Assembly: GCA_013140455.1 (NCBI GenBank)
Contig: JABFSU010000136.1
Coordinates: 1-57,486 of the forward strand
Direction of reading: 5' to 3'
Source of the DNA: Nitrospira sp.
GTDB lineage: Bacteria; Nitrospirota; Nitrospiria; Nitrospirales; Nitrospiraceae
DNA length: 57,486 bases
In this document: positions 26,215 to 45,424 of the stretch, one piece after another
Layout of the letters: each line of letters opens with the position of its first letter
How positions within the stretch are numbered: the first letter of the stretch is position 1
Translations under genes and position numbers: made by a program
The notes under the pieces: model-generated
The model's database searches: none
What the model was told of the DNA's origin: nothing
The model's input: only the letters and a program-made list of their open reading frames with translations

Positions 26215-26270
26215 GACCAGCGACAAATGTGTCTGACACCTCTCACAGTTCAGATGGGCTTGAGGACGGC

Positions 26271-27158
26271 ATGAAGAGACTACCAAAGTTGTTGACCACA
26301 CTTTCTCTCGCAATTCAGCTTGTCTATGCGTCAGTCGTCTTCTCTCAACCGGCTATTTTGATCGCCCCTGAGCTGAAGCCCGTCCCTCGCACCGGGCCAC
26401 TGCCCCCAATTCCGTTGCCCCCAAAGCCTAAGGTTCTTCCAAACCCTTTTCCTTTTTCCACCGATCATAAGGAAATCCGAAGAGCTCCTTTTTACATTCC
26501 ACCAAACGAAGGGTTTGCCGTCAGTTTTTGTGACGACTACTATTGCGTCCTCAGCGCCAGGTCCTTCAAGCAACTAGAGGCCGGATGGTGCTGGAACGCC
26601 GCGGCACAGAGTGTCATGCGCTACCATGGCTACTATTTTTCTCAGTGCACCATTGCCAACACCACCTACCCCCCGCCCTCCTCTTTCACCTCCCCACAGC
26701 CTTGTTGCTTGCAAGACGGTAGACCAGATCCTGCTACCAACTGTAGGTTGATAGGAAGCCCTGGCGGCCTTCCACAAGATGTTTTCAATGCATTCGGATT
26801 CGATTATTGGCCTGCTATTGGTCAGCTTGCTACCCCAAGCTGGAGCTATGCAGTGGGCGAGATTTTGAATTATCGGCCTTTTATCGCCTGGCTTGATCCA
26901 CGCATCAGCGGTCTTTGGGCCCATACTTATGTCGTGCATGGCTTTAACAAACTGAATAATGCGATGGAGCTTAGGCTCAGCGATCCTCAGCAGGGCCCTT
27001 CAGTCATTAATCCGCAGAACCCTCCGTGGGCGGAAGATTGGTTTCAACCTTGGGACAACATACTTAGATCGCATAGTAGTGGGCAACTATTGCCAGTTGG
27101 CTTGGGCGACACGAATAATGAGCACAAGGGGGATATCGCCGGGATCGAACCACAGTGA
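26271..27158 (+). CDS. Exported papain/C39-like cysteine protease
   Basis: 295 residues from ATG 26271 (GAGG upstream), with a signal peptide (LLTTLSLAIQLVYASVVFS) and a Pro-rich linker. The protease signature is GWCWNAAAQSVMRYHG with nucleophile Cys107, then His218 in WAHTYVVHGFN and a following LSDPQQG that may supply the Asp/Asn. This resembles peptidase_C39-like/AvrRpt2-type papain folds. Extra Cys pairs (PCCLQ, TNCRL) suggest disulphides, so activity outside the cytoplasm. It lies between two unknown exported proteins and may process one of them or a nearby secreted protein; that is inference. Confidence 0.75.
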   Translation: MKRLPKLLTTLSLAIQLVYASVVFSQPAILIAPELKPVPRTGPLPPIPLPPKPKVLPNPFPFSTDHKEIRRAPFYIPPNEGFAVSFCDDYYCVLSARSFKQLEAGWCWNAAAQSVMRYHGYYFSQCTIANTTYPPPSSFTSPQPCCLQDGRPDPATNCRLIGSPGGLPQDVFNAFGFDYWPAIGQLATPSWSYAVGEILNYRPFIAWLDPRISGLWAHTYVVHGFNKLNNAMELRLSDPQQGPSVINPQNPPWAEDWFQPWDNILRSHSSGQLLPVGLGDTNNEHKGDIAGIEPQ

Positions 27159-27189
27159 GTTGACAGCAACTACGCATATGCGGAGTTCT

Positions 27190-27936
27190 ATGCTCGACAA
27201 TCCAGCTATTCAAGGAGTGAAGTTCGTGGGTTTCGGCCTAGTCCTGCTGCTTGTCCTATCGCCTGTCCCTGGGCAGGCCGCAAGCAGTGAGCCCAAGGGA
27301 ACGGAAACAATGCCTGTGGGCACTCGCACGTTCCACGATCCCCAAACGGCTGCGAACCTTGGCCTGAAGGATTTACAGAAAATTGGGTTGTCGCCAGACC
27401 AGGCTCACGAAGCCTATGCCACGGCTTTGGGGTTTTCTTCAGCTGCCGAAACGCTGAAGGCTCAGTTGGGAATCGGGCTTCGAACGTATGACGTCGTTCC
27501 AAGTTCCCTCCAGAGATTCCATAAAGAAGACGATCCGGTCACCCTGCTACTTGATCTGCACGAGATTGTATTTCCTGTCTTGGTCCAGGGAGAGCCACGA
27601 TCATCGCTCACGATTGCCGAATTAGAGCGGGGGAAAGGATGGAGGGTTCTGAAGAAGGGACGAACCGCACTCATCCGACTGATCGAGGAATACAGAACAT
27701 CCGCTGACGATAATTTGGTTGTCATTTCATCGCTTGGTCTCCAGTTTCTGGGTAAACGCAGCCCTACAGACCAAGAGGAACTCGTACTAGTTCCGCTCTT
27801 TGATAGCACGGCATTGGAGGTTCAAGCCGGCCAGCCGGTATTTGCCCGAGAGCTCTTTGTTCAAATTAATAAACAAATACAGATTCCGGATCAGGATGAC
27901 GGTGCACAAAAGATTCGGCCATCAATCGCGCGGTAA
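27190..27936 (+). CDS. Hypothetical exported protein, 248 residues
   Basis: ATG 27190 follows GCGGAG at good spacing; the frame is open far upstream but overlaps the protease gene. Signal peptide VKFVGFGLVLLLVLSPVPGQAA. The mature part contains helix-rich KDLQKIGLSPDQAHEAYATALGF and a beta-rich half (DPVTLLLDLHEIVFPVLVQG, ELVLVPLFDSTALEV). Not recognised. It follows the cysteine protease by 31 bases and is likely in the same operon. Confidence 0.68.
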   Translation: MLDNPAIQGVKFVGFGLVLLLVLSPVPGQAASSEPKGTETMPVGTRTFHDPQTAANLGLKDLQKIGLSPDQAHEAYATALGFSSAAETLKAQLGIGLRTYDVVPSSLQRFHKEDDPVTLLLDLHEIVFPVLVQGEPRSSLTIAELERGKGWRVLKKGRTALIRLIEEYRTSADDNLVVISSLGLQFLGKRSPTDQEELVLVPLFDSTALEVQAGQPVFARELFVQINKQIQIPDQDDGAQKIRPSIAR

Positions 27937-27959
27937 ACTCACTAACCAGGAGGGATAGA

Positions 27960-28379
27960 ATGCTGAGGTTTAGTCGGGCATTGACAGGCAGAGACATGAT
28001 CTTGTTCATGGGAATTTTCCTGTTGATAGGGCTACAGGGTTGCGATTTTCATATTTACCATCACGGACGCCTTGACAAAATGGTTGGGGACGGTCGCACT
28101 ACGGTACCGGCTGGGCCTGATGACTGTGGCGCTAAGGGATGCGACCCAGCAGGTTACACCGGTTCCCCGCAAGACTTTGTGGGAATCGGCGGACCCAGTC
28201 CAGTTGGAACCGGCTATACCTGTAACGCCGGAAGTGTCAAGTGCGGCAACAACAACCCGGGATGTTCACTGCGCTACCCAAACAAGGTATGCACGTCCAC
28301 ATTTACATATCCCAGCAGTGGCACTAGTGGGCCTTGTGCGTGTCAATGTCTCAATCCGCCGCCGCCACCGGCGCCTTGA
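27960..28379 (+). CDS. Cys-rich lipoprotein
   Basis: 139 residues behind a CAGGAGGG ribosome site. Lipobox GLQGC (Cys at about 28) after a hydrophobic LFMGIFLLI segment. The mature part is short, Gly/Pro-rich and holds about ten Cys (DDCGAKGCDPAG, CNAGSVKCGNNNPGC, CACQCLNPPPPP), suggesting a disulphide-stabilised surface lipoprotein. Function unknown. The last gene of the 25030-28379 exported run. Confidence 0.7.
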   Translation: MLRFSRALTGRDMILFMGIFLLIGLQGCDFHIYHHGRLDKMVGDGRTTVPAGPDDCGAKGCDPAGYTGSPQDFVGIGGPSPVGTGYTCNAGSVKCGNNNPGCSLRYPNKVCTSTFTYPSSGTSGPCACQCLNPPPPPAP

Positions 28380-28576: not shown

Positions 28577-31573
28577 ATGAAGAGAATAGGCTTGAAAGAT
28601 GGGAGCCGACACCTGCACATGCATGACGTGGCCCCCTTTCTCGCGAGCCTCGTCATATTCCCTTTTTACTTTCTCACTCTCGGCCACGCTCAAATCTCCC
28701 CGCCCATCACATCCTCTGGTCTGAACACGGTCGTGACAACGAACGGCAATGTTCACAGTATCACTGGCGGCACACGGCCTGGCAACGGAACAAACCTCTT
28801 TCACAGTTTCGGTGAATTTGGCGTCCCGACAAATAGCATCGCCAGCTTTCTGAATGAGACGGCGCTCCCAACAAACAACATTCTCGGTCGCGTGACCGGC
28901 GGTAATCCCTCGAACATCTTCGGCACCGTGCAAACCACCGGCTTCGATAATGCAAATCTGTTTCTCATGAATCCAGCCGGCATCATATTTGGGCCCAATG
29001 CCACATTGAATATCGGCGGGTCCGTCACCTTCACCACCACCACCGCGGATTACATCAGGCTCGCAACTGACAATGTGCGTTTCAACGCGATTCCCAACGC
29101 AGCAGCCGACGCCCTCCTAAACACGGCTCCGGTCGCCGCCTTCGGGTTTCTCGGATCGAATCCAGGGACCATTACCGTCCAGGGTAGCCAGCTTTCAGTC
29201 TCAGAAGGTCAAGGCATCTCGCTCGTTGGGGGAAACATTACGGTTCAGGCAGGCACGTTGGATGATGGAACGGTCCAGCCGACTCGGCTCTCAGCTCCCG
29301 GCGGTCAGATCAATCTCGCCAGTGTCGCATCGCCTGGCGAGATTGCCGCCGATAGTTTCCTGCCATCACCAGGCACGACGATGGGACATATCAACCTTTC
29401 CCAAGGATCATTACTGGATGTCTCAGCAGATGCCGCTGGGGCGGTCCGGATACGAGGCGGTCAGTTTGTGATGGATCAAGCCACGATTTCCACCGACACG
29501 GCCAATGTAAATGGCACGCCGGTTGCGATCGACATTAATGTCACCGGTGATATGTCCATCTCGAACGATGGAGCGCCTGCGCTCACTGCAAAATCTTCTG
29601 GTTCAGGTGACGCCGGAGAGATTCGCATTGTGTCCGCCAACTTGACGGTGACATCAACGGCTCTAGACTCAACGCTCGCCCTGATCGATACCCATACCTC
29701 AGGGATGGGCCGAGCGGGGAAGGTCAGTATCACAACCGGCAATCTCGAAGCAGGCAGCGGCGTTTGGTTCATCGATAGCGGAACATCGGCAGCGGGGCAT
29801 GGCAACGATGTCATAATCGATGCAACCAGCGCGCACTTTAACGACGTGAATATCAGCACCGGGGATTTCCGCGCGCACAACCAGGATATCTTTGATGCGA
29901 CAGGCTTTGCCGGAAATATTCGGCTAACGGCGGACTCTCTTAACTTGGTAACGACAGTTCTATCTACAGATTCCTTCCTGGGGCGAGGAGGAGAAAGTAC
30001 ACTGACAGCCAGAACCATTGAGATGACGAATGGTTTGATCGGATCTCTTTCCCTCGGCGGCAGCGGAGCTGTCACCATTGCAGCCGATAGCATACGGATG
30101 ACCCGAGCACAAATTGAGACAGAGACCGCATTCGAACCCGGGCGCGCCATTACTCTTACCGGGAAGGTAATCGAACTCAGAGACGGAACCTCTATACGGA
30201 ACCAGACCTCTGGCAATGCGGATGCCGGCAATATCCTTGTGGCAGCCACAGACCGTCTTACCCTCTCCGACCAGCCCACCACGAGCAGACCCACGGGGCT
30301 CTACACCAACTCGTTAGGCGTCGAAGGCGAACCTCTGGATACGCTCGGGGGAAAATCAGGCTCAATCACGATTACCACCCCTCTGCTTGAAATGAGTGGG
30401 GGGGCACGGATCAACACCACCACGGAAACGAGCGGACGGGGTGGCGATGTCACGATCGTCGCGACCGACCTTCTCTCCATTTCAGGAGAACGGCGCCTCC
30501 CGATCGCCGAAGACGAACTATCCCTTGGTGCCACGAATCCTGGTGGAATATTCACCCGCACTGTCGGCAACCAGTACTGTTCAGGGCCTTGCGGCAACGC
30601 TGGACATATCTCAATCACCACCGGTTCCATGAACTTGAACAGCGGTGCAGCAATCGATAGTGGAACTAGCAGCACCGGACAAGGTGGCGCGATTGGAATT
30701 AACGCAACGAACGCCATCACTCTATCTGGCACGCTAGCTGACGGCACACCAGGTGGCATCTTCAGTCGCGCAGTTGGAACCTCCCAGGATTCGGGCTCAG
30801 GTGGCAACATCGCTCTCACTGCCGGTCAATCAGTGAGCATCTCAGACGGCGCGTCGGTTTCCGCGAGCAGCACCGGCCCCGGCAACGCAGGGAACATTGC
30901 GATCAATGCCGGCCAACAATTTGAAATGCGCAACAGCTCTGTGAAGACGGAAGCGGCGCAGGCGAGCGGCGGGAATATCGACATTCAGGCCATCGACCGT
31001 ATCCGACTGGTGAATAGCTCCATCAGCACGTCCGTCCTCGGCGGCGCGGGCAGCGGTGGAAATATTACCATCGATCCCAATGTCGTCATCTTGCAGAACA
31101 GCCAGGTGATCGCGCAGGCCTTCCAGGGTTCCGGAGGGAACATTTCCATCACGACTCCCCTCTTCCTGGCCGATGCAAGCAGCCTGGTCGATGCCTCGTC
31201 GCAGTTCGGCTTGAACGGCACGGTGAATATCCAGAGTCCGACCTCGAACCTGGCAGGCACGGTCTCCTCACTCCCCTCTTCGCTTCGCCAGGTGCAGTCC
31301 CTCCAGACCGGCCGTTGCGCCGCATTGGCCGATAGCCGATCCAGCAGCCTGATCGTCGCCGGGCGCGATAATCTTCCGGCGGAACCGGGCGGCTGGTCGC
31401 CCAGTCCCTTCGCGCTCATGGGCGAAGAGACCGATTCGCTTGCCATCGCGTCACCGCCGGTCGCCACCATGACCGCATCAGCCGATGCCCCGGTTTCGTT
31501 GCGCCGGTTGACCCCCGCAGGCTTTCTGACACAGCGCTTTGCGGAGAATGGATTGACTGGATGCCGAGCGTAA
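28577..31573 (+). CDS. TpsA-type filamentous haemagglutinin-family exoprotein
   Basis: 998 residues. An extended signal peptide (to about residue 38, FLTLGHAQ) is followed by the TPS/haemagglutination-activity domain (GLNTVVTTNGNVHSITGG ... NLFLMNPAGIIFGPNATL), the recognition region for the TpsB pore. The rest is a long right-handed beta-helix with G-N-I-x-I and G-D-V-x-I rungs (GSITITTPLLEMSGGARI, GGNIDIQAIDRIRLVNSS). It ends in a Cys-containing segment (TGRCAALAD...; final GCRA), as in cyanobacterial-type TpsA. A surface or released adhesin or structural exoprotein, exported by the next gene product. Confidence 0.92.
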   Translation: MKRIGLKDGSRHLHMHDVAPFLASLVIFPFYFLTLGHAQISPPITSSGLNTVVTTNGNVHSITGGTRPGNGTNLFHSFGEFGVPTNSIASFLNETALPTNNILGRVTGGNPSNIFGTVQTTGFDNANLFLMNPAGIIFGPNATLNIGGSVTFTTTTADYIRLATDNVRFNAIPNAAADALLNTAPVAAFGFLGSNPGTITVQGSQLSVSEGQGISLVGGNITVQAGTLDDGTVQPTRLSAPGGQINLASVASPGEIAADSFLPSPGTTMGHINLSQGSLLDVSADAAGAVRIRGGQFVMDQATISTDTANVNGTPVAIDINVTGDMSISNDGAPALTAKSSGSGDAGEIRIVSANLTVTSTALDSTLALIDTHTSGMGRAGKVSITTGNLEAGSGVWFIDSGTSAAGHGNDVIIDATSAHFNDVNISTGDFRAHNQDIFDATGFAGNIRLTADSLNLVTTVLSTDSFLGRGGESTLTARTIEMTNGLIGSLSLGGSGAVTIAADSIRMTRAQIETETAFEPGRAITLTGKVIELRDGTSIRNQTSGNADAGNILVAATDRLTLSDQPTTSRPTGLYTNSLGVEGEPLDTLGGKSGSITITTPLLEMSGGARINTTTETSGRGGDVTIVATDLLSISGERRLPIAEDELSLGATNPGGIFTRTVGNQYCSGPCGNAGHISITTGSMNLNSGAAIDSGTSSTGQGGAIGINATNAITLSGTLADGTPGGIFSRAVGTSQDSGSGGNIALTAGQSVSISDGASVSASSTGPGNAGNIAINAGQQFEMRNSSVKTEAAQASGGNIDIQAIDRIRLVNSSISTSVLGGAGSGGNITIDPNVVILQNSQVIAQAFQGSGGNISITTPLFLADASSLVDASSQFGLNGTVNIQSPTSNLAGTVSSLPSSLRQVQSLQTGRCAALADSRSSSLIVAGRDNLPAEPGGWSPSPFALMGEETDSLAIASPPVATMTASADAPVSLRRLTPAGFLTQRFAENGLTGCRA

Positions 31574-31586
31574 GGTCGAGGCTTGG

Positions 31587-33350
31587 ATGAGGAATCACAG
31601 ATCGTTTGCGCGGCCGAGCGCAGGCATCGCTCTTCGTGCGGGGTTCGTCATGCTGCTCACGCTGACCCCTTCAGCTCTCCTGGCTCAGGCCCTTCCGCCG
31701 GTCTTCGATCCGACCGGCCGATCCGGTGAACCACCCGGTCCGCTCAAGAAGGAGTTCAGGCCGCCGGCTCCCCCGCCAAGCATGGTCCTGCCGCCGGTGC
31801 CACAGGCGCCGGATAGCGACCTGCAGCGGCAATTGGGACAGATCCGCGTTTTCGTGCACGACATCCATGTGACGGGCAACACCGTCTTTACGGAGGCGGA
31901 GATCGACCAGGTCACGAAGCCGTTCAAGGGCCGCACCCTCACGACGGATGACCTGGAGCGGCTGCGGCTGGCGCTGACCCTGCTCTACGTCAATCGAGGC
32001 TACATCACGTCGGGCGCGATTATTCCCGATCAGGACGTGACGCTCGGCGTCATCACCTATCACATCGTCGAAGGCACGGTCGCGCGGATCGATGTGGAAG
32101 GGACCGACTGGTTCCGTGACGGCTATCTGCGCGACCGGGTGGCGCTGGGCGTCAAAACGCCCTTTGCCATCACGCCGCTACAGGAACGGCTGCAACTGCT
32201 CCAGCAGGACCAGCGCCTTGAGCGCATCAACGCGGAACTCCGCCCCGGCGATCGCCGCGGGGAGAGCGTGCTGAATCTGCGGGTGAAGGAAGCCTCTCCG
32301 TGGAAAGCCTGGCTGGATTTCAATAACCATCAGACACCGGTCGTGGGCGCCGAACGGGGGCTGGCGACGATCGCACACCAAAATGTCACCGGCCACGGCG
32401 ATGCCTTCAGCTTCACCTATGGCCGGTCGCGCGGCGTGAATCCGATCATCGACACTTCCTACACGATTCCGGTGAATCGGTACGATACCACTCTGTCGGC
32501 CTACTACCGGCGTAACGATTTCCTCGTGGTCGATGAGAGCTTCCGCTTTCTCGACTTGAAGGCCGACGCTGAGATCTTCGGCATCACACTCCGCCAGCCG
32601 CTCTACAAAACGCTCACCGATGAGTTTGCCGTCGCGATCACCGGGGAACGGCTCTATAACAAGGTGACTTCCGCGTTCGACCAGGCCGGGCTCCCTTCAC
32701 TGTTCATCCCCGGCTCATCGGACACCGGCGTCAACACGGTCAGCGCGCTCCGCTTCATTCAAGAATATGTTCATCGCACGTCGAACTCGGTCATCGCTGT
32801 CCGTTCCCGCTTCTCCGTCGGGCTCGACGTGCTCGGCGCGACCAATAACTCCGGCCCGCTGCCGGACACCCAGTTCTTCTCCTGGTTGGGTCAAGTGCAG
32901 GGGTTGCAGCGACTCGACGACTGGGGGGGCGTGCAGCTGCTGGGACAGATGAGCCTCCAGCTCGCGAACGACCGCCTCTTCCCGCTGGAACAGGTGCCGG
33001 TCGGCGGACGCTTCAGTGTCCGTGGCTATCGCGAGAACACGCTCATTCGCGACAACGCGTTTCTCGCCTCCATTGAGTCCCGCATCCCGCTGCTCACGTT
33101 TCCCTCCGGCGAGCCCCGCCTCCAATTCGCGCAATTCGCCGATGTGGGCCGCGCCTGGAATGCCAAAGGCGGCACACCCGATCCGCAGACGCTGGCGAGC
33201 GTCGGATTGGGCATACGGTGGAGTCTTCTCCCTCAGGAGCGCGCACGGTTTGAACTCTACTGGGGACAACCGCTCAATCACGTTCCGCATCCGCCCGGCA
33301 ACCTGCAGGATCACGGCATCCATCTGCAGTTTGTCATGCAAGTCTTATAA
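31587..33350 (+). CDS. TpsB outer-membrane transporter (ShlB/FhaC/HecB family)
   Basis: 587 residues: signal peptide, a Pro-rich stretch, a first POTRA domain (VFVHDIHVTGNTVFTEAEIDQV), a second POTRA (GTVARIDVEGTDWFRDGYL) and a C-terminal 16-strand barrel. The family signature VRGYRENTLIRDNAFLASIE is intact, and the end is FVMQVL. It secretes the TpsA protein encoded 13 bases upstream across the outer membrane. Confidence 0.94.
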   Translation: MRNHRSFARPSAGIALRAGFVMLLTLTPSALLAQALPPVFDPTGRSGEPPGPLKKEFRPPAPPPSMVLPPVPQAPDSDLQRQLGQIRVFVHDIHVTGNTVFTEAEIDQVTKPFKGRTLTTDDLERLRLALTLLYVNRGYITSGAIIPDQDVTLGVITYHIVEGTVARIDVEGTDWFRDGYLRDRVALGVKTPFAITPLQERLQLLQQDQRLERINAELRPGDRRGESVLNLRVKEASPWKAWLDFNNHQTPVVGAERGLATIAHQNVTGHGDAFSFTYGRSRGVNPIIDTSYTIPVNRYDTTLSAYYRRNDFLVVDESFRFLDLKADAEIFGITLRQPLYKTLTDEFAVAITGERLYNKVTSAFDQAGLPSLFIPGSSDTGVNTVSALRFIQEYVHRTSNSVIAVRSRFSVGLDVLGATNNSGPLPDTQFFSWLGQVQGLQRLDDWGGVQLLGQMSLQLANDRLFPLEQVPVGGRFSVRGYRENTLIRDNAFLASIESRIPLLTFPSGEPRLQFAQFADVGRAWNAKGGTPDPQTLASVGLGIRWSLLPQERARFELYWGQPLNHVPHPPGNLQDHGIHLQFVMQVL

Positions 33351-33361
33351 GGACGAGGCCG

Positions 33362-35719
33362 ATGAGCCCTAGACGCATCCTCCTCCGCCGCACTGCATCA
33401 GGGGCCGGCTCTCGGCGCGCCGCCGGATGGATCCGCCGCTGGATCGGCCTGACACTCTTCGCACTCTCGCTCACGACCGGGGTGCAGGGGGCAACCACCC
33501 CGGATAGTCTCGACACCCTGCTGGCGCAGGGCACCGACGCCTTTCGCCGCGGCGCGTTTGAACAAGCCCTCGCCACCTGGAAAGAAGCCGCCAGGCTTGC
33601 CGGCGAACGCGGCGCGACCCGCGAACACATCCAGGCCCTCCTCGGCACCGCACAAGCGGCGCAGGCCCTCGGTCAGTCCAAGCAGGCCCTGCTCCAGCTT
33701 GATCTTGCGCTGGTGCTCTCACACAACAGCGGCGATCCGCAGACCACAGCGGGCGTGCTGGCCCAACTCGGTCGCACGTATCTCGCGGTCGGTCACCTCG
33801 ATGAAGCCGAGGAACGCCTGACCGACGCGTTGACGCTCGCCCGTCGAGACGCCTCACCTGCACTCACGGCCGCCATCTTGAACGATCTGGGCATTCTCCA
33901 CGCCCTCAGACACGAGGACGCCGAGGCGCTGGCTTCATTTCATGACAGTACGACGATTGCGCAGGACGCCGGGCTTCCCATGGTCGCGATTACCGCAAGA
34001 ATCAATGCCGCGCGCGCGGCGTTGCGGCTCGGCCAGCCACAGGACAGCCGGCTCTGGCTCGATCAATCACTCGACCAGGCCCGTGAACTGTCCCCGTCTT
34101 ACAACAAGGCCGTTGGCTTGATTAATATCGGGCTGGGCTACGGGCACCTGCGGCCGCTCCTGCCTGCCATCGGCGATGCGCTGCTCATACGAGCCGCCGG
34201 CGTGTTGCAAGAAGCGGTAGCCCTCTCGGAACGATTGGGAGATGCGCGCACCTCGTCCTATGCGCTGGGCTATCTCGGGCATCTCTACGAAACAGAACGG
34301 CGCACCGAGGAAGCGCTGCAGTTGTCCCGGCGCGCGGTATTCTCCGCACAATCCGCGGGCGTACCGGAAGCCCTTTACCGCTGGCAGTGGCAGGTGGGCC
34401 GGCTGCTGGCGTCGAGCGGCCACCTCGACGACGCCATCACCTCCTACCGGCAGGCCGCCGCCACCTTGCTGCCCATCAGACCGGAAGTGGCCCGCGCCTC
34501 CTATGAGGCGTCGACTCCGGACCAGGAGTCTGTGCGCCCCTTGTTTTTCGAACTGGCCGACCTCCTGCTCCAACGCGCCGGGTTGACGGATGACGCCCCC
34601 ACCGCACAGGCCTATCTCCTGACGGCGCGCGACGCGATCGAAGCCTTCAAAGCGGCTGAATTGCGGGAATACTTCAAGGACGAATGCGTCGATGCCCTGC
34701 AGGCCCGCATCACCAAGCCCGACCAGCTCTCCCCGACCACGGCGGTGATCTATCCCATCATGTTCGCAGACCGATTGGACATGCTCGTCAGCCTCCCGAC
34801 CGGGATGACAAGAATCACTGTGCCGATTCCTGCCGTAACATTGGCGCAGGAAGTCCGTGCGTTCCGCCGCACGGTCGAGAAACGGACGACCAGGGAATAC
34901 CTCACCCATGCCCAACAGCTCTACGACTGGCTGGTTCGACCGATCGAGGCAGACCTGACCCGCTTGCACATCAATACGCTCGTGTTTGTCCCAGACGGAG
35001 CGCTTCGCACCATTCCCCTGGCAGCCTTACATGATGGAACCGGCTTCCTCATTCAGAAATTTGCCGTGGCGCTGACCCCCGGGCTCAATCTCACGGATCC
35101 CCACCCGATTAACCGCGAGACCGTCCGGTTTCTGTCCACCGGACTGACACAGGCCGTCCAGGGATTTCCGGCGCTTCCGTACGTGGCCGAAGAAATGGGG
35201 GCAATCCACGATCTCTATCGCGGCGATCAACTGCTCAACAGCGAGTTTCAGACAGCCCGACTGGAGCAGGAATTGCTGGACGGTCAGTTCGGCGTGTTGC
35301 ACATTGCCACGCACGGAAAGTTTTCGACGGATGCGAACGAGAGTTTTCTGGTGACGTTCGACGGAAAACTCACCGTGAATCAGCTGGACCGGCTGATCGG
35401 CCTGTACCGGCTCCGGCAGGAACCGCTCGAACTGCTCACCCTCAGCGCCTGCCAGACCGGCGTCGGCGATGATCGCGCCGCCCTCGGCCTCGCGGGAATC
35501 GCCATCAAAGCCGGCGCGAGAAGCGCGATCGCCACGCTGTGGTTCATCAATGATGAAGCTTCTGCCGCGCTGATTTCAGAATTCTATCGGCAGCTCCGGA
35601 ATCCCTCGATTTCCAAAGCGGTCGCATTGCAACAGGCTCAGGCGAAGCTGTTGGCTGATCGGGTCTATGAGCATCCTGCTTACTGGTCACCCTTCTTGTT
35701 GCTCAATAACTGGCTATAA
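33362..35719 (+). CDS. TPR-CHAT protease
   Basis: 785 residues. A signal or membrane segment is likely at about residues 20-42 (IGLTLFALSLTTGVQGATT). Tetratricopeptide-like repeats follow over about residues 45-420 (GAFEQALATWKEAARLAGERG, GHLDEAEERLTDALTLARR). The C-terminal CHAT (caspase/separase-like) domain has the catalytic pair His651 (LHIATHGKF) and Cys697 (TLSACQTGVGDDRAALGLAG). CHAT proteins cleave specific protein substrates. It sits 11 bases after tpsB, and a role in processing the exoprotein or another envelope substrate is inferred from position only. Confidence 0.9.
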   Translation: MSPRRILLRRTASGAGSRRAAGWIRRWIGLTLFALSLTTGVQGATTPDSLDTLLAQGTDAFRRGAFEQALATWKEAARLAGERGATREHIQALLGTAQAAQALGQSKQALLQLDLALVLSHNSGDPQTTAGVLAQLGRTYLAVGHLDEAEERLTDALTLARRDASPALTAAILNDLGILHALRHEDAEALASFHDSTTIAQDAGLPMVAITARINAARAALRLGQPQDSRLWLDQSLDQARELSPSYNKAVGLINIGLGYGHLRPLLPAIGDALLIRAAGVLQEAVALSERLGDARTSSYALGYLGHLYETERRTEEALQLSRRAVFSAQSAGVPEALYRWQWQVGRLLASSGHLDDAITSYRQAAATLLPIRPEVARASYEASTPDQESVRPLFFELADLLLQRAGLTDDAPTAQAYLLTARDAIEAFKAAELREYFKDECVDALQARITKPDQLSPTTAVIYPIMFADRLDMLVSLPTGMTRITVPIPAVTLAQEVRAFRRTVEKRTTREYLTHAQQLYDWLVRPIEADLTRLHINTLVFVPDGALRTIPLAALHDGTGFLIQKFAVALTPGLNLTDPHPINRETVRFLSTGLTQAVQGFPALPYVAEEMGAIHDLYRGDQLLNSEFQTARLEQELLDGQFGVLHIATHGKFSTDANESFLVTFDGKLTVNQLDRLIGLYRLRQEPLELLTLSACQTGVGDDRAALGLAGIAIKAGARSAIATLWFINDEASAALISEFYRQLRNPSISKAVALQQAQAKLLADRVYEHPAYWSPFLLLNNWL

Positions 35720-35795
35720 AGGATCTCGACCCTATGCTAGAGTACGATTCATGCATGGATATTCACCAAAAAGCCTCAGCAAGAGGGGGTGCACG

Positions 35796-36554
35796 GTGAA
35801 ACCCACGTTGTTGTTTTACATCATCTGTACAATGCCCCTGGGCTTGACACTGGTGGAACCGACGCAGGCCACGGCAGGATCCGGGCCGTCCGACGCCCCT
35901 CACGTCGCCTCCCCTGATGATCTGTCGCTGCCGATCTATACCCCGCCCAGGAGATTTTCGCCTCGAGCGCGGGTCGGCGGGGAAATGCGTGGGACCGGCG
36001 GTAGCGACCCTGAAATTCAAGCCCTCGTCCCCGATCATGTCGGCCTGACGATCAATCAAACGCCGGTGCTGAATTGGTTTCTTTCCAAACCCACGGCCTA
36101 TACCGTTCGTTTCACGCTGATCGATAATCGCTCGATCAAGCCGGTGCATGAAGCCCCCATCCCTTCTCCGACGAAGGCAGGAATTCAGACGATTAATCTG
36201 AAGGAGATGGGACTGACGCTCGAACCGGACGTGCAGTATCGCTGGTACGTCTCTGTGATTCGTAACCCTGACTCGCCGTCGCAGGATATCGTGGCGGGGG
36301 GAGTCATTGAGCGCTGTGAATTCAATGCCTGTCTCGTCGAAGCAGGCCCCCACCTCACCTGCAGCACGCAGAGCGTGCAGGACAACGCCCGCCGGGGATT
36401 CTGGTACGACGCCATGGCCTGTCTCTGCGCGCTCATCGATGCCCAGCCCACCGACGCCCCGCTCAGACGCATGCGCGCCGCGCTGCTGAAACAAGTCGGT
36501 CTTCACGGGGTGGCCGAGTGGGATCTTCGTTCCCTTACGACGCCGACCCGATAG
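35796..36554 (+). CDS. DUF928-domain exported protein
   Basis: 252 residues from GTG 35796, preceded by AGAGGGGG at six bases; an in-frame ATG at 35751 is the alternative. Signal peptide (LLFYIICTMPLGLTLVEPTQA). DUF928 features: PPRRFSPRARVGGEMRGTGG, then PEIQALVPDHVGLTINQTPVLNWFL and a beta domain with PDVQYRWYVSVI, plus four Cys in the C-terminal part. DUF928 proteins of unknown function occur next to TPS and CHAT genes in cyanobacteria, which is the arrangement here. Probably the last gene of the TPS operon. Confidence 0.85.
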   Translation: MKPTLLFYIICTMPLGLTLVEPTQATAGSGPSDAPHVASPDDLSLPIYTPPRRFSPRARVGGEMRGTGGSDPEIQALVPDHVGLTINQTPVLNWFLSKPTAYTVRFTLIDNRSIKPVHEAPIPSPTKAGIQTINLKEMGLTLEPDVQYRWYVSVIRNPDSPSQDIVAGGVIERCEFNACLVEAGPHLTCSTQSVQDNARRGFWYDAMACLCALIDAQPTDAPLRRMRAALLKQVGLHGVAEWDLRSLTTPTR

Positions 36555-37425: not shown

Positions 37426-39438
37426 ATGAACGCAGAGCTGAGACGATCAGGCCATCCGATGCTGGCCACGCTGCTGACCGTGAGTCTGAGCGGCCTGGCG
37501 CAGACGGAATCCCCCGCCGCGGACCCAACCAACGTGACCGACTCGGCTCCTCACATCGACGCCATCGAATTGATCAAAGAAGAAGAAAGCGTGGGTATTG
37601 CCTCACGCTATGAACAACCGATCTCGCAAGCGCCGGCCAACGTATATGTGATCACGGACGAGGACATCCGGCATTCGGGAGCCACCGACATCCCTACCCT
37701 CCTCCGTCGTATCCCCGGGATGGAAGTGATGCAGATGAACGGTGCGGACTTTAACGTCAGTGTTCGGGGGGACAATCAGGACAATGCCAACAAGCTGTTA
37801 GTCATGGTTGACGGACGCTCAATCTATCTTGACGTTCAAGGAACTATGAACTGGAAACTCCTGCCGGTCACACTACCGGAAATTAAACGAATCGAGGTGT
37901 TGAAAGGACCCGCTTCTGCGGTATGGGGGTTCAACGCTTTCGACGGCGTGATCAATATCATCACGAAATCCCCGGAGGAAATGAAAGGCACCACCCTGCA
38001 ATTCGGTGGCGGGGGATACGGCACCCTCATGGCCTCCGCGATCCAGGCCGGCACCGTGGACAAGTTCGGCTATCGTCTCTCCATTGGGCACAATCAGAAC
38101 GCGTCCTGGAGCAACAGCAGTTCCTTGGCCTTCCGGAACAATTTGCTCAACGTCTTAACCGAATATGCCCTTGCACCGGAATCCAAAATCAAGATCTCCG
38201 GCGGAATTGTGGACGCCAATGCGTTTAACTCCCTCGTGGGCCAGGATGTCATGATCTCCCAACGCCCCGCACAGAGCTACGCCAGCATAAGCTACGAACG
38301 CTCGAATTTCTTTGTGCGGGCGTTCTGGAATCGGCTTGATATCACCGCGAATCCCCTGTTCCAGCCTCCACTGGCCCCGTTTCTAAGCCTGACCAGTAGA
38401 GATGGCTCTCCCACACAAACCTTTGTGGGCAATACCTATAACATCGACGTTCAGCATTCCCTCGCCTTGTGGCCTGGAAACCGTGTGACCTATGGACTGA
38501 ACTATCGGCTCAATACTCTTTCGAGCAACACCCTCTCGCAGGACAGCTCCGAGAACAGACTGGGATTTTTCGTCCAGGATGAATGGAAGATAGCTCACCC
38601 GGTCACAATCGTGGCCGGCGTTCGTTACGACCTCAACACCTTTATGGGTCCGACAATCAGCCCCCGGATCGCCCTCCTCTACGCACCATCCCCAGATCAT
38701 ACGTTTCGATTCTCTGGCTCTGTGGCGTATCGGCCGCCGGCACTGCTCGATAAGAAAGAGGATGTGAGAGTGACGACGAACCCACCCTTGCCATCAGTAA
38801 CGACGTCCGTGGTGGGAGGCCAAAGTCTCTCGCCTGAACAAATCATCTCCTACGAAGCAGGCTATCAGGGGTGGTATTGGCAGCACCGGTTCCGGATACG
38901 TGCGGACGCCTTTTATAATCACATCTCCGATCTCATCAGTGTTCGCAATCAATCCGCCACCCTCGCAACCTTTAGCAACGACACCGGCTCTGCCGATATC
39001 TATGGCGGCGAAGCCGGAGTGGAATTCCTCGCCACCAAGTGGCTGACCGGGTTTGCCAATTACTCCTACCAGGAGATTCACCAGACGTTTACAGGGCGCG
39101 TCCAACGTGCCGGTCCCCGCAATAAGTTCAATGTCGGCTTGCGCGGTGAGTGGGACAACGGACTCAGCGCCGAAGCGATCTTTCATTACTACGGATCGGC
39201 CAGCTATCCCCCGGGTCAGTCGTTCACGACCTTCTCTCAAGCCGGCCTCGTCTCCTTGCCGAACCCGAACGTCGGTTCCTACAATCTCTTGAACTTGCGC
39301 GCCGGCTACCGGTTTTGGCACGACCAGGCCGAAGTGGCCGTGTCCGCATTCAACGCCCTCAACGACAAGCACCAGGAGTATCCTCTTGGTGAGGCCATCG
39401 GCAGCCGGGTGATGGGCTGGTTGACGGTGAGGTTCTAA
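37426..39438 (+). CDS. TonB-dependent outer-membrane receptor
   Basis: 670 residues. The plug domain is at about 60-180 (ISQAPANVYVITDEDIRHSGATDIPTLLRRIPGMEV; VSVRGDNQDNANKLLVMVDGR; IEVLKGPASAVWGFNAFDGVINIIT). A 22-strand barrel follows, ending in a terminal Phe (MGWLTVRF). It imports a siderophore, vitamin or other ligand with TonB energy; the ligand is not deducible. An N-terminal extension before the plug could hold a weak TonB box (IDAIELI). It lies upstream of the sensory cluster 39579-46864 and may supply or be regulated by it. Confidence 0.92.
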   Translation: MNAELRRSGHPMLATLLTVSLSGLAQTESPAADPTNVTDSAPHIDAIELIKEEESVGIASRYEQPISQAPANVYVITDEDIRHSGATDIPTLLRRIPGMEVMQMNGADFNVSVRGDNQDNANKLLVMVDGRSIYLDVQGTMNWKLLPVTLPEIKRIEVLKGPASAVWGFNAFDGVINIITKSPEEMKGTTLQFGGGGYGTLMASAIQAGTVDKFGYRLSIGHNQNASWSNSSSLAFRNNLLNVLTEYALAPESKIKISGGIVDANAFNSLVGQDVMISQRPAQSYASISYERSNFFVRAFWNRLDITANPLFQPPLAPFLSLTSRDGSPTQTFVGNTYNIDVQHSLALWPGNRVTYGLNYRLNTLSSNTLSQDSSENRLGFFVQDEWKIAHPVTIVAGVRYDLNTFMGPTISPRIALLYAPSPDHTFRFSGSVAYRPPALLDKKEDVRVTTNPPLPSVTTSVVGGQSLSPEQIISYEAGYQGWYWQHRFRIRADAFYNHISDLISVRNQSATLATFSNDTGSADIYGGEAGVEFLATKWLTGFANYSYQEIHQTFTGRVQRAGPRNKFNVGLRGEWDNGLSAEAIFHYYGSASYPPGQSFTTFSQAGLVSLPNPNVGSYNLLNLRAGYRFWHDQAEVAVSAFNALNDKHQEYPLGEAIGSRVMGWLTVRF

Positions 39439-39578
39439 ATGGTTTCCTTAAGTGGTATATCTCTACTATGCTTGCGCGATTCCCGTGACGGTACCGCGCA
39501 AACACACCGACACTCCGCCTTGGGCAACGGTGAGTCAAGCCGTTGCCTATTACGAAGGCTTCACTGACTGAGGGCGCT

Positions 39579-41999
39579 ATGGCCGGCGAAGCCCCTTCAT
39601 ATACCGTACTCGTCGTGGAAGACAATCCGGATATTGTCGTCAGCCTGCAGGACCTGCTCACCCACGACGGCTATACCGTCCATACCACCGACTCTTGTGC
39701 CGGCGCACTCGCCCAGCTCCGTGCCCATCATTTCAATGCGGTCTTGCTTGATCTCACCTTGCCGGACGGCGATGGCCTTGAGGTGCTCGCCACAATCCAA
39801 CAGCTGGACCCGCATTTATCCGTGATCATCGTCACAGCCAGCACGGCGACGGAGAAAACGGTGGGGTCGCTGACCAGGGGGGCCTTCGCCTACTTGACCA
39901 AACCCTACCATCGCGAGGAGCTTCGGCAGACGCTTCGCCGCGCGATCGGGGTGAAGGAACTGGCGGTGAAAGCCCAACGCGCCGAACATCTCCTGACGGA
40001 AAGCGAAGACCGCTTCCGCTCACTGGTCGAGTCGGCCAGCGACGCCATCGTGGTCGCCGATGGGCGAGGAATCATCGTCTCGCATAATCGATCAGCTGCG
40101 ATCATGTTCGGCTACCAGCCACACGATCTGGTCGGTCAACCGCTCACGGTCCTGATGCCCTCGCGGTATCACCATCGCCATATTGCCGGCCTGGCCCGTC
40201 TGGAAGGGGGCGGATCGGGGCGGCTCATCGGATCGGTCATCGAACTGCAGGGGCTCAAGCAAGACGGCACCGAATTTCCGATCGAACTCTCGTTGGCCAC
40301 CTGGAAAACAGAGACCGGCAACTTCTATAGCGGCATCATTCGCGACAGTTCCAAACGGAAAGAAACGGAGCGGGCGCTGGATGAACTGCGTCGCCGGCAC
40401 AGCCTCATCCTGACACAGGCCGGCGAGGGCATCTATGGCATCGATCGCCAGGGACTCGCCACGTTCGTGAATCCGCGCGCGGCCGCAATGCTCGGGTATG
40501 CGGTGAAAAACTTGATCGGACGCCCCATGCATGCGCTCCTACACCACACCAGAATCGACGGAACCCCGTACCCTGAAGACTCCTGTCCGATCTACGCCGC
40601 CCTGCACGACGGTGAGATCCATCGCGTCTCGCATGAAGTATTCTGGAAGCGCGACGGCACCAGCTTCCCGGTCGAATACGTCAGCTCTCCGCTGTGGGAG
40701 GACGACACCGTCGCCGGGGCGGTCGTGGTCTTTCATGATACGACCAAACAGTGGCGGATTGAATCGGGATTGCGGGAACGGGAAGACCGTCTGGAATACG
40801 TGATCCGCGGATCGAGCGACGGATTCTGGGATGGACAGGTCCTGCCCGGCCAGCCGTGGCATCATCCTCATACCCCGGTCTGGTGGTCACCGCGGGTGCG
40901 CGAGTTGTTAGGATACAGCCGGGAGGAGTTTCCGGACATTCTGGAAAGCTGGACGTCCCGGTTGCATCTTGAAGATGGTGAGCGAGTCCTGGCCGCATTG
41001 CGCGCGCACCTGGAACAGCACGAACCGTACGACGTGGAATACCGGCTCCTCACGAAACACGGCGAATACCACTGGTTCCGCGCACGCGGTCTGGCCGTGT
41101 GGGATGACGAGGGACATCCCATCCGCATGGCAGGCTCCTTACAGTGCATCACCGACCGCAGACGGATCGAAGAAGCCCTCCGACGCAGCGAACGGCTCCT
41201 GAAAGATGTGATCGATAACACCACCGCCGTCATTTACGTGAAGGGGACGGACGGACGGTTCATGCTGACGAATCGCCGGTTCGAACAGTTGTTCAACCTG
41301 ACCGCCGATCAGATCGTCGGGCGCACCAATCATGATCTCTTTCCCCGCGAGATTGCCGACGCGTTCAGCGCCAACGATCGCCAGGTGTTGGAACGCAAGA
41401 CTCCGGTGGAGTACGACGAAATCGCCCCTCATCGGGACGGCCTCCACGATTATATCTCGATCAAATTTCCGCTCTGCGACGAAACCGGCACACCCTACGC
41501 CATGTGCGGAATCTCCACCGACATCACCGAACGGAAACGTCTGGGAGATTCCCTCCGCATCAACGAGGAGCGGGTTCAGCTCGCGCTCATGAGTGCGCGC
41601 ATTGGCATCTGGGACTGGAACCTGCAGACGGACCACTACTACTGGTCGCCGATCGTCAACGATCTACTCGGCCTGCCGGTCGGCGCCGGTTCCCTCTCCA
41701 GGCAGGATTTTCTGGCCAGCGTCTATGCAGACGATCAGGCCTCTGTTCTGGCGGCGTTGCTGGCGGCACAACATTCTTCACAGACTGAGCTCGCCTTTGC
41801 TCACCGCGTGTGCCGGGCCGACGGCACGCTCCAGTGGCTCTCATGGTCGGGCCATATCGTTCGGAGTGCGACCGGCGCAGCGACCCGCATCCTGGGGACC
41901 GTTCAATCGACAACACCCGGACAGATGACGCCGTCAGAGCCCGCGCAGACAGGTCGCAACGCCCTAGAGAAACCGCGACACGATCATACGCCATCATGA
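39579..41999 (+). CDS. Receiver protein with five PAS domains and no output domain
   Basis: 806 residues from ATG 39579 (CTGAGGGCG upstream; the frame opens earlier at a TTG). N-terminal CheY-like receiver (VEDN; phospho-acceptor Asp58 in LLDLTLPDG; Lys in TKPYH). Five PAS/PAC units follow (starting near RFRSLVESASDAIV, RHSLILTQAGEGIY, LEYVIRGSSDGFWDG, LKDVIDNTTAVIYVK, VQLALMSARIGIWDW), several ending in DITERKR-type PAC motifs. The protein stops 40 residues after the last PAS, with no kinase, cyclase or DNA-binding part. Cytosolic. It starts the four-gene sensory cluster and presumably signals by interaction. Confidence 0.86.
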   Translation: MAGEAPSYTVLVVEDNPDIVVSLQDLLTHDGYTVHTTDSCAGALAQLRAHHFNAVLLDLTLPDGDGLEVLATIQQLDPHLSVIIVTASTATEKTVGSLTRGAFAYLTKPYHREELRQTLRRAIGVKELAVKAQRAEHLLTESEDRFRSLVESASDAIVVADGRGIIVSHNRSAAIMFGYQPHDLVGQPLTVLMPSRYHHRHIAGLARLEGGGSGRLIGSVIELQGLKQDGTEFPIELSLATWKTETGNFYSGIIRDSSKRKETERALDELRRRHSLILTQAGEGIYGIDRQGLATFVNPRAAAMLGYAVKNLIGRPMHALLHHTRIDGTPYPEDSCPIYAALHDGEIHRVSHEVFWKRDGTSFPVEYVSSPLWEDDTVAGAVVVFHDTTKQWRIESGLREREDRLEYVIRGSSDGFWDGQVLPGQPWHHPHTPVWWSPRVRELLGYSREEFPDILESWTSRLHLEDGERVLAALRAHLEQHEPYDVEYRLLTKHGEYHWFRARGLAVWDDEGHPIRMAGSLQCITDRRRIEEALRRSERLLKDVIDNTTAVIYVKGTDGRFMLTNRRFEQLFNLTADQIVGRTNHDLFPREIADAFSANDRQVLERKTPVEYDEIAPHRDGLHDYISIKFPLCDETGTPYAMCGISTDITERKRLGDSLRINEERVQLALMSARIGIWDWNLQTDHYYWSPIVNDLLGLPVGAGSLSRQDFLASVYADDQASVLAALLAAQHSSQTELAFAHRVCRADGTLQWLSWSGHIVRSATGAATRILGTVQSTTPGQMTPSEPAQTGRNALEKPRHDHTPS

Positions 42000-42003
42000 T
42001 ATT

Positions 42004-42978
42004 ATGACGAAGCCCCTTCGATATCATACGGAGCGCCTCCCCCTCGCCAAAAGCTTCGCGTTTGGCAGGACGTTGGTGGGATTCGCTCTGCCCCTTATAT
42101 CCTGTCTCCTCGGATCAGCCAACGCCCTCGCCGGAGAGATTGCGATTCTGAAATCCTCCGACTTGCAGGCCTATGCGCAGGCGATCGAGGGATTCAAAGT
42201 CACGGCGCCGGCCTCCATGACCTATGCCGAATACGACTTGCGCGGTGATTCTGAACTCGGGAAAAAACTGGCCCGCAAGATCAGAGCCTCCGATGCGTCG
42301 CTCGTCCTGGCCGTCGGCTTGAAAGCCGCCCTGGCCGCCCAGGTGGAAATCATGGATATTCCCATCGTCTACATGATGATCCTGGATCCCTCGAAACATC
42401 ATCTCGCCACGCCGAATATCACCGGCACATTGCTGGATATTCCCGTCGACCGGCAGTTCAAGATTCTCCGCTCATTTCTGCCGTCGCTCCGCCGGCTCGG
42501 AGTCCTGTTCGATCCCACGAAGACCGGGTTTCACAGTAACGGCACGGCCCGCCATGCTGCCGCCAGCGGGTTCGAATTGGATGAATTCCCCGTCGCCAGT
42601 GAGAAAGAAGTCCCGCTGCAGCTGCGCACGCTTCTCACTACCGCCGACGGGTTGTGGCTGGTGCCCGATTCAACGGTTTTGACCGCGGAGTCCGTTGGTT
42701 TCATCCTCGAATCAGCCATGGCACGCCATGTCCCGGTCATCGGCTTCTCGCCGGAAATGACCAGGCTCGGAGCGCTCCTCAGCATTTCCGTCTCCTACAG
42801 TGATGTCGGCCGGGAAACCGGCCTGCTTGCCAGACGACTCCTTGATGGAGACCGGAAACTCCCGATGAAACCGATACCCATCGAACGCCTGAACATCACC
42901 GTGAACCAAAAGACCGCCAACTTTCTGGGCATCAACTTTCCCAACGACATTGAGCGCCTGATTGATGAGAAATATTAG
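42004..42978 (+). CDS. Periplasmic ABC-type substrate-binding protein (ABC_sub_bind family)
   Basis: 324 residues, signal peptide (LVGFALPLISCLLGSANALA), then two Rossmann-like lobes of the PF04392 type (SLVLAVGLKAALAAQ, ITGTLLDIPVDRQFKILRSFLP, RLGVLFDPTKTG, ADGLWLVPDSTVL, PVIGFSPEMTRLGALLSIS). No permease or ATPase gene is in the window. It lies 4 bases after the PAS protein and 12 bases before the histidine kinase, so it probably acts as the periplasmic sensor partner of that kinase rather than in transport. The ligand is unknown. Confidence 0.88.
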   Translation: MTKPLRYHTERLPLAKSFAFGRTLVGFALPLISCLLGSANALAGEIAILKSSDLQAYAQAIEGFKVTAPASMTYAEYDLRGDSELGKKLARKIRASDASLVLAVGLKAALAAQVEIMDIPIVYMMILDPSKHHLATPNITGTLLDIPVDRQFKILRSFLPSLRRLGVLFDPTKTGFHSNGTARHAAASGFELDEFPVASEKEVPLQLRTLLTTADGLWLVPDSTVLTAESVGFILESAMARHVPVIGFSPEMTRLGALLSISVSYSDVGRETGLLARRLLDGDRKLPMKPIPIERLNITVNQKTANFLGINFPNDIERLIDEKY

Positions 42979-42990
42979 GACCTGATTCCT

Positions 42991-45309: not shown

Positions 45310-45424
45310 GGTGTACAGGCCGCCCAACAGGAGTCTCCATGCCCGGATAGACCGGCAATAGACCATGTATTTTTTTCGATGAAGTCACTACACTTCCGAA
45401 GCATGAATACGGGACGTACACGCT

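What the first reader, a model, noticed from the sequence alone, without database searches (positions are those of the whole stretch)
28577..36554. Two-partner secretion system fused by position to a TPR-CHAT protease and DUF928 protein
TpsA, TpsB, TPR-CHAT and DUF928 follow in one direction with gaps of 13, 11 and 76 bases. CHAT proteins are caspase/separase-like with catalytic His651 and Cys697 intact, and the gene product has a possible signal segment. A protease tied to an exoprotein exporter suggests substrate maturation, release or a contact-dependent effector. Similar sets are known from cyanobacteria, but the joint function is not described.
Basis: partly seen in the sequence, partly recalled or inferred. 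Interest (0 to 1): 0.72.

Follow-up and report, generated by a model that had tools for sequence, protein, structure and literature searches.

The report
Exported CHAT protease paired with adhesin secretion
In Nitrospira, and in several further bacterial phyla, genes for a large secreted surface protein and its exporter travel with an exported caspase-like (CHAT) protease and a DUF928 protein; the surface protein carries a previously unnamed cysteine-containing C-terminal tag that goes with this protease, which suggests a dedicated device for processing or releasing adhesins.

Summary
TpsA, TpsB, TPR-CHAT and DUF928 lie in one direction with gaps of 13, 11 and 76 bases, and the CHAT His651 and Cys697 are intact. 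The association is conserved. In 295 genomes of the phylum, 74 of 84 DUF928 genes lie within 12 kb of a CHAT gene and 62 of 84 near all three partners. The same set, often with a CHASE2-cyclase, occurs in Cyanobacteriota, Pseudomonadota, Desulfobacterota and, less completely, Scalindua and Spartobacteria. New here: TpsA proteins of these loci end in an unannotated motif (C...SSF..GRD.LP..PG). All 64 genomes with the motif have a CHAT gene (112 of 295 overall), and 78 of 80 CHAT genes near a TPS gene have a motif nearby. Three TpsA-CHAT fusions exist; in two, TPR-CHAT follows the motif. This CHAT subfamily has an invariant extra cysteine (Cys442), absent from 15 other CHATs. Best model: the periplasmic TPR-CHAT protease recognises and cuts TpsA's C-terminal tail, controlling surface retention, a counterpart of LapG-CdrA. 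Cleavage is inferred, not shown. Motif TpsA form essentially one clade, so the motif-CHAT statistics are not independent events. No held paper links CHAT with two-partner secretion.

The parts
28577..31573 (+). tpsA: 998-aa exoprotein; signal peptide, TPS domain (aa 46-291), filamentous repeats, C-terminal motif, terminal Cys
   Evidence: PF05860 E 3.4e-42; translation
31283..31420 (+). C-terminal motif of TpsA (RCAALADSRSSSLIVAGRDNLPAEPGGWSPSP), not covered by any Pfam or NCBIfam model; motif Cys914 at 31316-31318
   Evidence: alignment A1, genome search E 2.9e-20; no Pfam/NCBIfam hit there
31562..31564 (+). TpsA Cys996, third residue from the C-terminus; second Cys of the tail
   Evidence: 92 of 94 long-tailed motif TpsA have exactly one Cys after the motif Cys; 92 of 94 have a Cys in the last 12 residues
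31587..33350 (+). tpsB: outer-membrane transporter, POTRA plus ShlB/Omp85 barrel
   Evidence: PF08479, PF03865, PF01103
33362..35719 (+). TPR-CHAT: exported caspase/separase-like predicted cysteine protease, His651 (35312-35314), Cys697 (35450-35452), subfamily-specific Cys442 (34685-34687)
   Evidence: PF12770 E 3.7e-56; invariant columns; AF2 mean pLDDT 87.6, nearest solved folds Csx29/Craspase TPR-CHAT and separase
35796..36554 (+). DUF928 protein, signal peptide, Ig-like sandwich plus helical TPR-like region (GTG start)
   Evidence: PF06051 E 9.7e-34; AF2 mean pLDDT 84.4; MtxA C-terminal domain 4z29 Z 10.0

Best explanation
The four genes are one module for a surface exoprotein. TpsA is threaded through TpsB N-terminus first, so its C-terminal tail is the last part to leave and can stay in the periplasm. 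The exported TPR-CHAT protein binds that tail through its TPR superhelix, recognising the Cys...SSF..GRD.LP..PG motif, and its His651/Cys697 dyad cuts in or near it, so that the exoprotein is matured or released from the cell. DUF928 (periplasmic Ig plus TPR-like) and, where present, the inner-membrane CHASE2-cyclase would couple this step to an envelope signal. Shown here: gene set, its conservation, the motif, its co-occurrence with CHAT, fusions, intact dyad, fold. Inferred: periplasmic location, binding, cleavage, its site and its regulation.
For: Linkage kept through about 20 arrangements. Motif in 64 genomes, all with a CHAT gene; 78 of 80 CHATs near a TPS gene have the motif nearby. 18 motif TpsA lie away from CHAT, all in genomes with CHAT elsewhere. 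The TPS-type CHAT is missing from nearly all genomes whose TPS proteins lack the motif, apart from three (G266, G272, G284) with broken or missing tpsA. Three TpsA-CHAT fusions: Acaryochloris L183, L235 from the Desulfobacterota draw (CHAT part begins 5 aa after the motif), Desulfobacteraceae L171. Extra Cys442 in 110 of 111 TPS-linked CHATs against 0 of 15 unlinked. Precedent: LapG, a periplasmic protease, cuts the C-terminal tail of the TpsA CdrA (PMC5422565, PMC11898600).
Against: No proteolysis or binding is shown. Motif TpsA form essentially one clade on the TPS-domain tree, so co-occurrence is mostly one ancient event; a paired test has only 2-3 independent contrasts and is not significant. 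G250, a one-contig genome, has a motif TpsA but no TPS-type CHAT. The GR of the motif is not invariant, so no cleavage site can be named. A reactive catalytic Cys must work in an oxidising periplasm.
Confidence: 0.5

Rival explanations
1. TPR-CHAT is mainly a periplasmic anchor: it holds the TpsA tail (non-covalently, or by a disulfide between the motif Cys and Cys442) and keeps the exoprotein on the cell; protease activity is secondary or acts on itself.
For: In fusions L235 and L183 the bulky TPR-CHAT is simply continued from the motif. Mature L183 has only three Cys: motif, Cys442 equivalent, catalytic; L171, without motif Cys, also lacks the Cys442 equivalent. Short-tailed TpsA have no second Cys to pair with.
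Against: The catalytic dyad is invariant, odd for a pure anchor. Long-tailed TpsA have their own second Cys that could close the bond within TpsA. The Cys pairing rests on three fusions.
Confidence: 0.2
2. The motif and terminal Cys form an HMW1/HxuA-like disulfide hook that locks TpsA in TpsB; CHAT acts only as a periplasmic chaperone or quality-control protease for stalled exoprotein.
For: 92 of 94 long-tailed TpsA have one Cys after the motif, at the C-terminal end; disulfide anchors are established for HMW1 and expected for HxuA (PMC5422565); DegP does such work in other systems.
Against: Known hooks are described as small loops, here the Cys are about 85 residues apart; 12 short-tailed TpsA lack the second Cys yet are mostly CHAT-linked; a general quality-control protease would not be fused to one substrate.
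Confidence: 0.15
3. CHAT is a stress or cell-death executioner that senses an extracellular or envelope signal through TpsA and DUF928, as CHAT and caspase-like proteins do in conflict systems.
For: Same fold as Csx29 and separase; CHAT genes cluster with caspase-family and signalling genes in some cyanobacteria; CHASE2-cyclase present in many loci.
Against: The protein begins with a signal-peptide-like segment and is predicted to leave the cytoplasm; no toxin, CRISPR or nucleic-acid-sensor gene was recognised next to the locus; fused forms carry CHAT on an exported protein.
Confidence: 0.1
4. The genes are only co-inherited neighbours without a physical link.
For: Motif TpsA form essentially one clade.
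Against: Three gene fusions, scattered loci within genomes, and linkage kept across phyla.
Confidence: 0.05

Closest known systems
LapG-CdrA (periplasmic protease releasing a TpsA adhesin, P. aeruginosa)
   Same: Periplasmic protease handles the C-terminal tail of a TPS exoprotein whose tail has hook cysteines; nucleotide-signalling protein linked (CHASE2-cyclase here, c-di-GMP control there)
   Different: CHAT instead of LapG; CHAT gene sits with tpsAB; DUF928 instead of LapD; cleavage not shown
HMW1/HxuA C-terminal disulfide anchor
   Same: TpsA with a Cys pair at the C-terminus and otherwise few Cys
   Different: Cys about 85 residues apart, embedded in a conserved motif, and tied to a protease gene; some members have one Cys only
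FhaB processing by DegP, CtpA and SphB1 (Bordetella)
   Same: Staged proteolysis of a TpsA C-terminus
   Different: The protease genes are not reported to be part of the TPS operon; other protease families
Craspase TPR-CHAT (Csx29)
   Same: TPR array plus CHAT domain; nearest solved fold (8eey, 7xsq, 7y84)
   Different: Exported, no Cas7-11/gRAMP neighbour, about 12-13% identity, partner is a TPS exoprotein
MtxA with CHASE2-cyclase (magnetotactic bacteria)
   Same: Ig-like plus TPR-like protein next to a CHASE2-adenylate cyclase gene; DUF928 model matches 4z29 at Z 10.0, neighbour from PMC4439547
   Different: No sequence match; no TPS or CHAT found mentioned in the passages read

Membership tests
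Two-partner secretion (type Vb) | TpsA with N-terminal TPS domain | tested here: met
   PF05860, 145.5 bits against cut-off 33.5
Two-partner secretion (type Vb) | Cognate TpsB with POTRA and ShlB/Omp85 barrel, adjacent gene | tested here: met
   PF08479, PF03865, PF01103 over cut-off; 13-base gap
Two-partner secretion (type Vb) | Secretion of TpsA by TpsB | not testable with these tools
   needs an experiment
CHAT peptidases (caspase/separase-like) | Catalytic His and Cys in HxATHG and LSAC | tested here: met
   His651 and Cys697 invariant in 26
CHAT peptidases (caspase/separase-like) | CHAT fold | tested here: met
   AF2 model, Foldseek E about 1e-13 to Csx29 and 1e-11 to separase
CHAT peptidases (caspase/separase-like) | Proteolytic activity | not testable with these tools
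   needs an assay
Craspase/Csx29 CRISPR protease | Gene neighbour Cas7-11/gRAMP | tested here: not met
   neighbours are TPS, DUF928, TonB receptor and two-component genes
LapG release system | LapG-family (Pfam) protease domain | tested here: not met
   only CHAT and TPR-type families hit
LapG release system | Cys hook in the TpsA tail | tested here: met
   Cys914 and Cys996; 92 of 94 long-tailed relatives alike; disulfide itself untested
HMW1-type disulfide anchor | Cys pair near the C-terminus forming a disulfide | tested here: inconclusive
   pair present but about 85 residues apart; 12 short-tailed forms have one Cys
CDI (CdiA/CdiB/CdiI) | Variable C-terminal toxin followed by a small immunity gene | tested here: not met
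   conserved C-terminal motif; tpsB follows after 13 bases
MtxA-like proteins | MtxA C-terminal fold | tested here: inconclusive
   4z29 Z 10.0, rmsd 5.1 over 161 residues, next best 6.5; no sequence match

The most novel reading that the evidence does not exclude
TPR-CHAT captures its substrate covalently: the motif Cys of TpsA pairs with the subfamily-specific Cys442 of CHAT, so the protease is first a disulfide anchor for the adhesin and then, on a signal relayed by DUF928 and the CHASE2-cyclase, the blade that releases it. The C-terminal motif would be a sorting signal for a caspase-like protease.
Probability: 0.13. Interest if true: 0.85.

Novelty: new variant of a known kind. Interest (0 to 1): 0.66.

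Why it matters
[quoted passage not shown] Here a dedicated protease gene travels with tpsAB in several phyla, together with a substrate-side motif that no Pfam or NCBIfam model covers and with natural fusions. It gives exported CHAT proteins, DUF928 and this class of exoproteins a shared, testable job: control of surface adhesins in nitrifiers and cyanobacteria.

Tried and rejected
Independent-pairs test of motif against CHAT linkage: too few contrasts, no significance; the Fisher p of 1e-17 ignores relatedness and is not used as proof. N-terminal hydrophobic segments do not separate TPS-linked from other CHATs, since both have them. CHASE2 as a co-occurrence marker: too common, 197 of 295 genomes. 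Promoter and terminator scan uninformative. Sequence search of DUF928 against solved structures: nothing. Paper searches linking CHAT with two-partner secretion, CHASE2 or hemagglutinin: none; DUF928: one paper, cyanobacterial neighbours only. CDI and CRISPR readings considered and dropped. Three apparent exceptions to Cys442 were gaps in my regular expression and do hold a Cys at or near that distance from the C-terminus.

Full report
Observation. The window is a whole contig (57,486 bases) of a Nitrospira-like genome of 3.79 Mb in 143 contigs. Pfam confirms TPS, ShlB/POTRA, CHAT with TPR, and DUF928, all far over their cut-offs. CHAT His651 and Cys697 are intact and invariant in 26 diverse relatives.

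Conservation of the set. I searched the same 295 genomes of the phylum for DUF928 (63 genomes), CHAT (112), TPS (101) and ShlB (142 over the cut-off). Of 84 DUF928 matches, 74 lie within 12 kb of a listed CHAT, 67 of a listed ShlB, 66 within 15 kb of a TPS domain and 62 near all three (lower bounds, since three of the lists were cut at 150 rows). The commonest order is TpsA-TpsB-CHAT-DUF928 as in the window, but about 20 arrangements occur, including inverted DUF928 and TpsB-TpsA-CHAT. Linkage that survives such shuffling speaks for a functional tie. In many loci a 640-670 aa CHASE2-adenylate/guanylate cyclase sits between CHAT and DUF928 (identity by Pfam for three of them, by length and place for the rest).

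Other phyla. A scan of named genomes with a DUF928 alignment gave the same neighbourhood in Sulfuricella, Beta- and Gammaproteobacteria and Desulfobacteraceae, and partial sets (no TpsA found beside CHAT and DUF928) in Scalindua and Spartobacteria. On cyanobacterial plasmids the annotated sets are TpsB-CHASE2-TpsA-CHAT-DUF928 (Pseudanabaena), TpsA-TpsB-CHAT-DUF928-CHASE2 (Planktothrix) and CHASE2-DUF928-TpsA-TpsB-CHAT (Nostoc UHCC 0302).

A C-terminal motif on the exoprotein. TpsA of CHAT loci share a region near the C-terminus, consensus L..RCAA...G..SSF..AGRD.LP.EPGGWL.SP, with one invariant Cys. No Pfam or NCBIfam model covers it. In the 295 genomes it gives 115 hits at E below 1e-6 in 64 genomes, nearly all downstream of a TPS domain; all 64 genomes have a CHAT gene. 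Of 150 listed TPS genes, 89 have motif and CHAT within 15 kb, 18 have the motif only (all in genomes with CHAT elsewhere), 39 have neither, and 4 have CHAT without the motif. Of the four exceptions, those in G272 and G099 are broken or end at a contig edge and the one in G055 has a TGA inside. Most cyanobacterial TpsA next to CHAT carry the same motif in the form C...SF..TGRGGLP..P. Searching 12 genomes behind loci of several phyla gave the motif in 10; the fusion genome behind L171 and the genome behind L161 had none. Because the motif model was built on such proteins and motif TpsA form essentially one clade of the TPS-domain tree, these counts are not independent; a paired test on the tree has only 2-3 contrasts and shows nothing.

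Cysteines. In 92 of 94 long-tailed motif TpsA exactly one more Cys follows, and in 92 of 94 a Cys lies within the last 12 residues; the median tail is 85 residues; the rest of the repeat region usually has no Cys. Twelve short-tailed TpsA have the motif Cys only. The CHAT proteins of these loci have two invariant Cys: catalytic 697 and 442. A signature around Cys442, or a Cys at about the same distance from the C-terminus, is in 110 of 111 TPS-linked CHATs, and the signature is in none of 15 CHATs from elsewhere in the phylum.

Fusions. L183 (Acaryochloris plasmid) is TPS-repeats-motif-TPR-CHAT in one protein; L235 is TpsB followed by TPS-repeats-motif-TPR-CHAT (CHAT part beginning five residues after the motif), then CHASE2-cyclase, then DUF928; L171 (Desulfobacteraceae) is TPS-repeats-CHAT without motif, on the other TPS clade. 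L171 also lacks the Cys442 equivalent, while L183 and L235 keep it. Fusion of two proteins that are usually separate is good evidence that they act on the same thing, here the C-terminal end of the exoprotein.

Folds. The TPR-CHAT model (mean pLDDT 87.6) matches Csx29/Craspase TPR-CHAT and human separase. The DUF928 model (84.4) is an Ig-like sandwich followed by helices; the MtxA C-terminal domain is the nearest solved fold (Z 10.0, next 6.5), and mtxA is followed by a CHASE2-adenylate cyclase gene (PMC4439547), the same kind of neighbour that DUF928 has here. This is a fold and neighbourhood match, not a sequence match.

How it probably works. In two-partner secretion the C-terminus leaves last and can stay periplasmic, locked by a disulfide in HMW1 and probably HxuA; in P. 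aeruginosa the periplasmic protease LapG cuts the CdrA tail and frees it (PMC5422565, PMC11898600). By analogy, exported TPR-CHAT would bind the TpsA motif and cut the tail, with DUF928 and the CHASE2-cyclase as the signalling side. Binding, cleavage, site and direction (maturation or release) are inferred. The main rival is that CHAT is an anchor, perhaps through a Cys914-Cys442 bond. A conflict or cell-death role and a contact-dependent toxin are less likely.

Limits. Most genomes are metagenome assemblies; localisation rests on hydropathy and sequence reading; the listed matches of three families were truncated at 150 rows; G250 is a real exception (motif TpsA without a TPS-type CHAT); the window's own locus has no CHASE2 gene beside it, though the genome has three CHASE2 matches.

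Noticed in passing
window 26229-28379: Three small genes directly upstream of tpsA (one weakly C39-peptidase-like, one lipoprotein-like and Cys-rich); similar small exported proteins sit upstream of tpsA in L058, L064 and L094.
   Followed up: no
window 37426-46864: TonB receptor, PAS-response regulator, ABC-type binding protein, histidine kinase and NtrC-like regulator follow DUF928; parts of this row are also found downstream of the set in L055, L058, L064 and L094.
   Followed up: partly
window 40017-40112: ARAGORN calls a tRNA-Asp inside the PAS-protein ORF, probably a false positive.
   Followed up: no
G154:C9, G191:C7, G133:C67, G252:C1, G218:C9, G212:C10: CHAT domains in open frames of about 2600-2840 aa, not near listed TPS genes.
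   Followed up: no
G055:C1 1942592-1948663 and 3048171-3053139 (and 15 similar clusters): A second layout, TpsB-TpsA-CHAT without DUF928 nearby, often with a short TpsA of about 440 aa that still has the motif.
   Followed up: partly
L041:4020-6071, L213: TpsA of the motif clade (placed on the tree for L041 only) that end just before the motif and have their own TpsB but no CHAT beside them; possible joint loss of motif and CHAT.
   Followed up: partly
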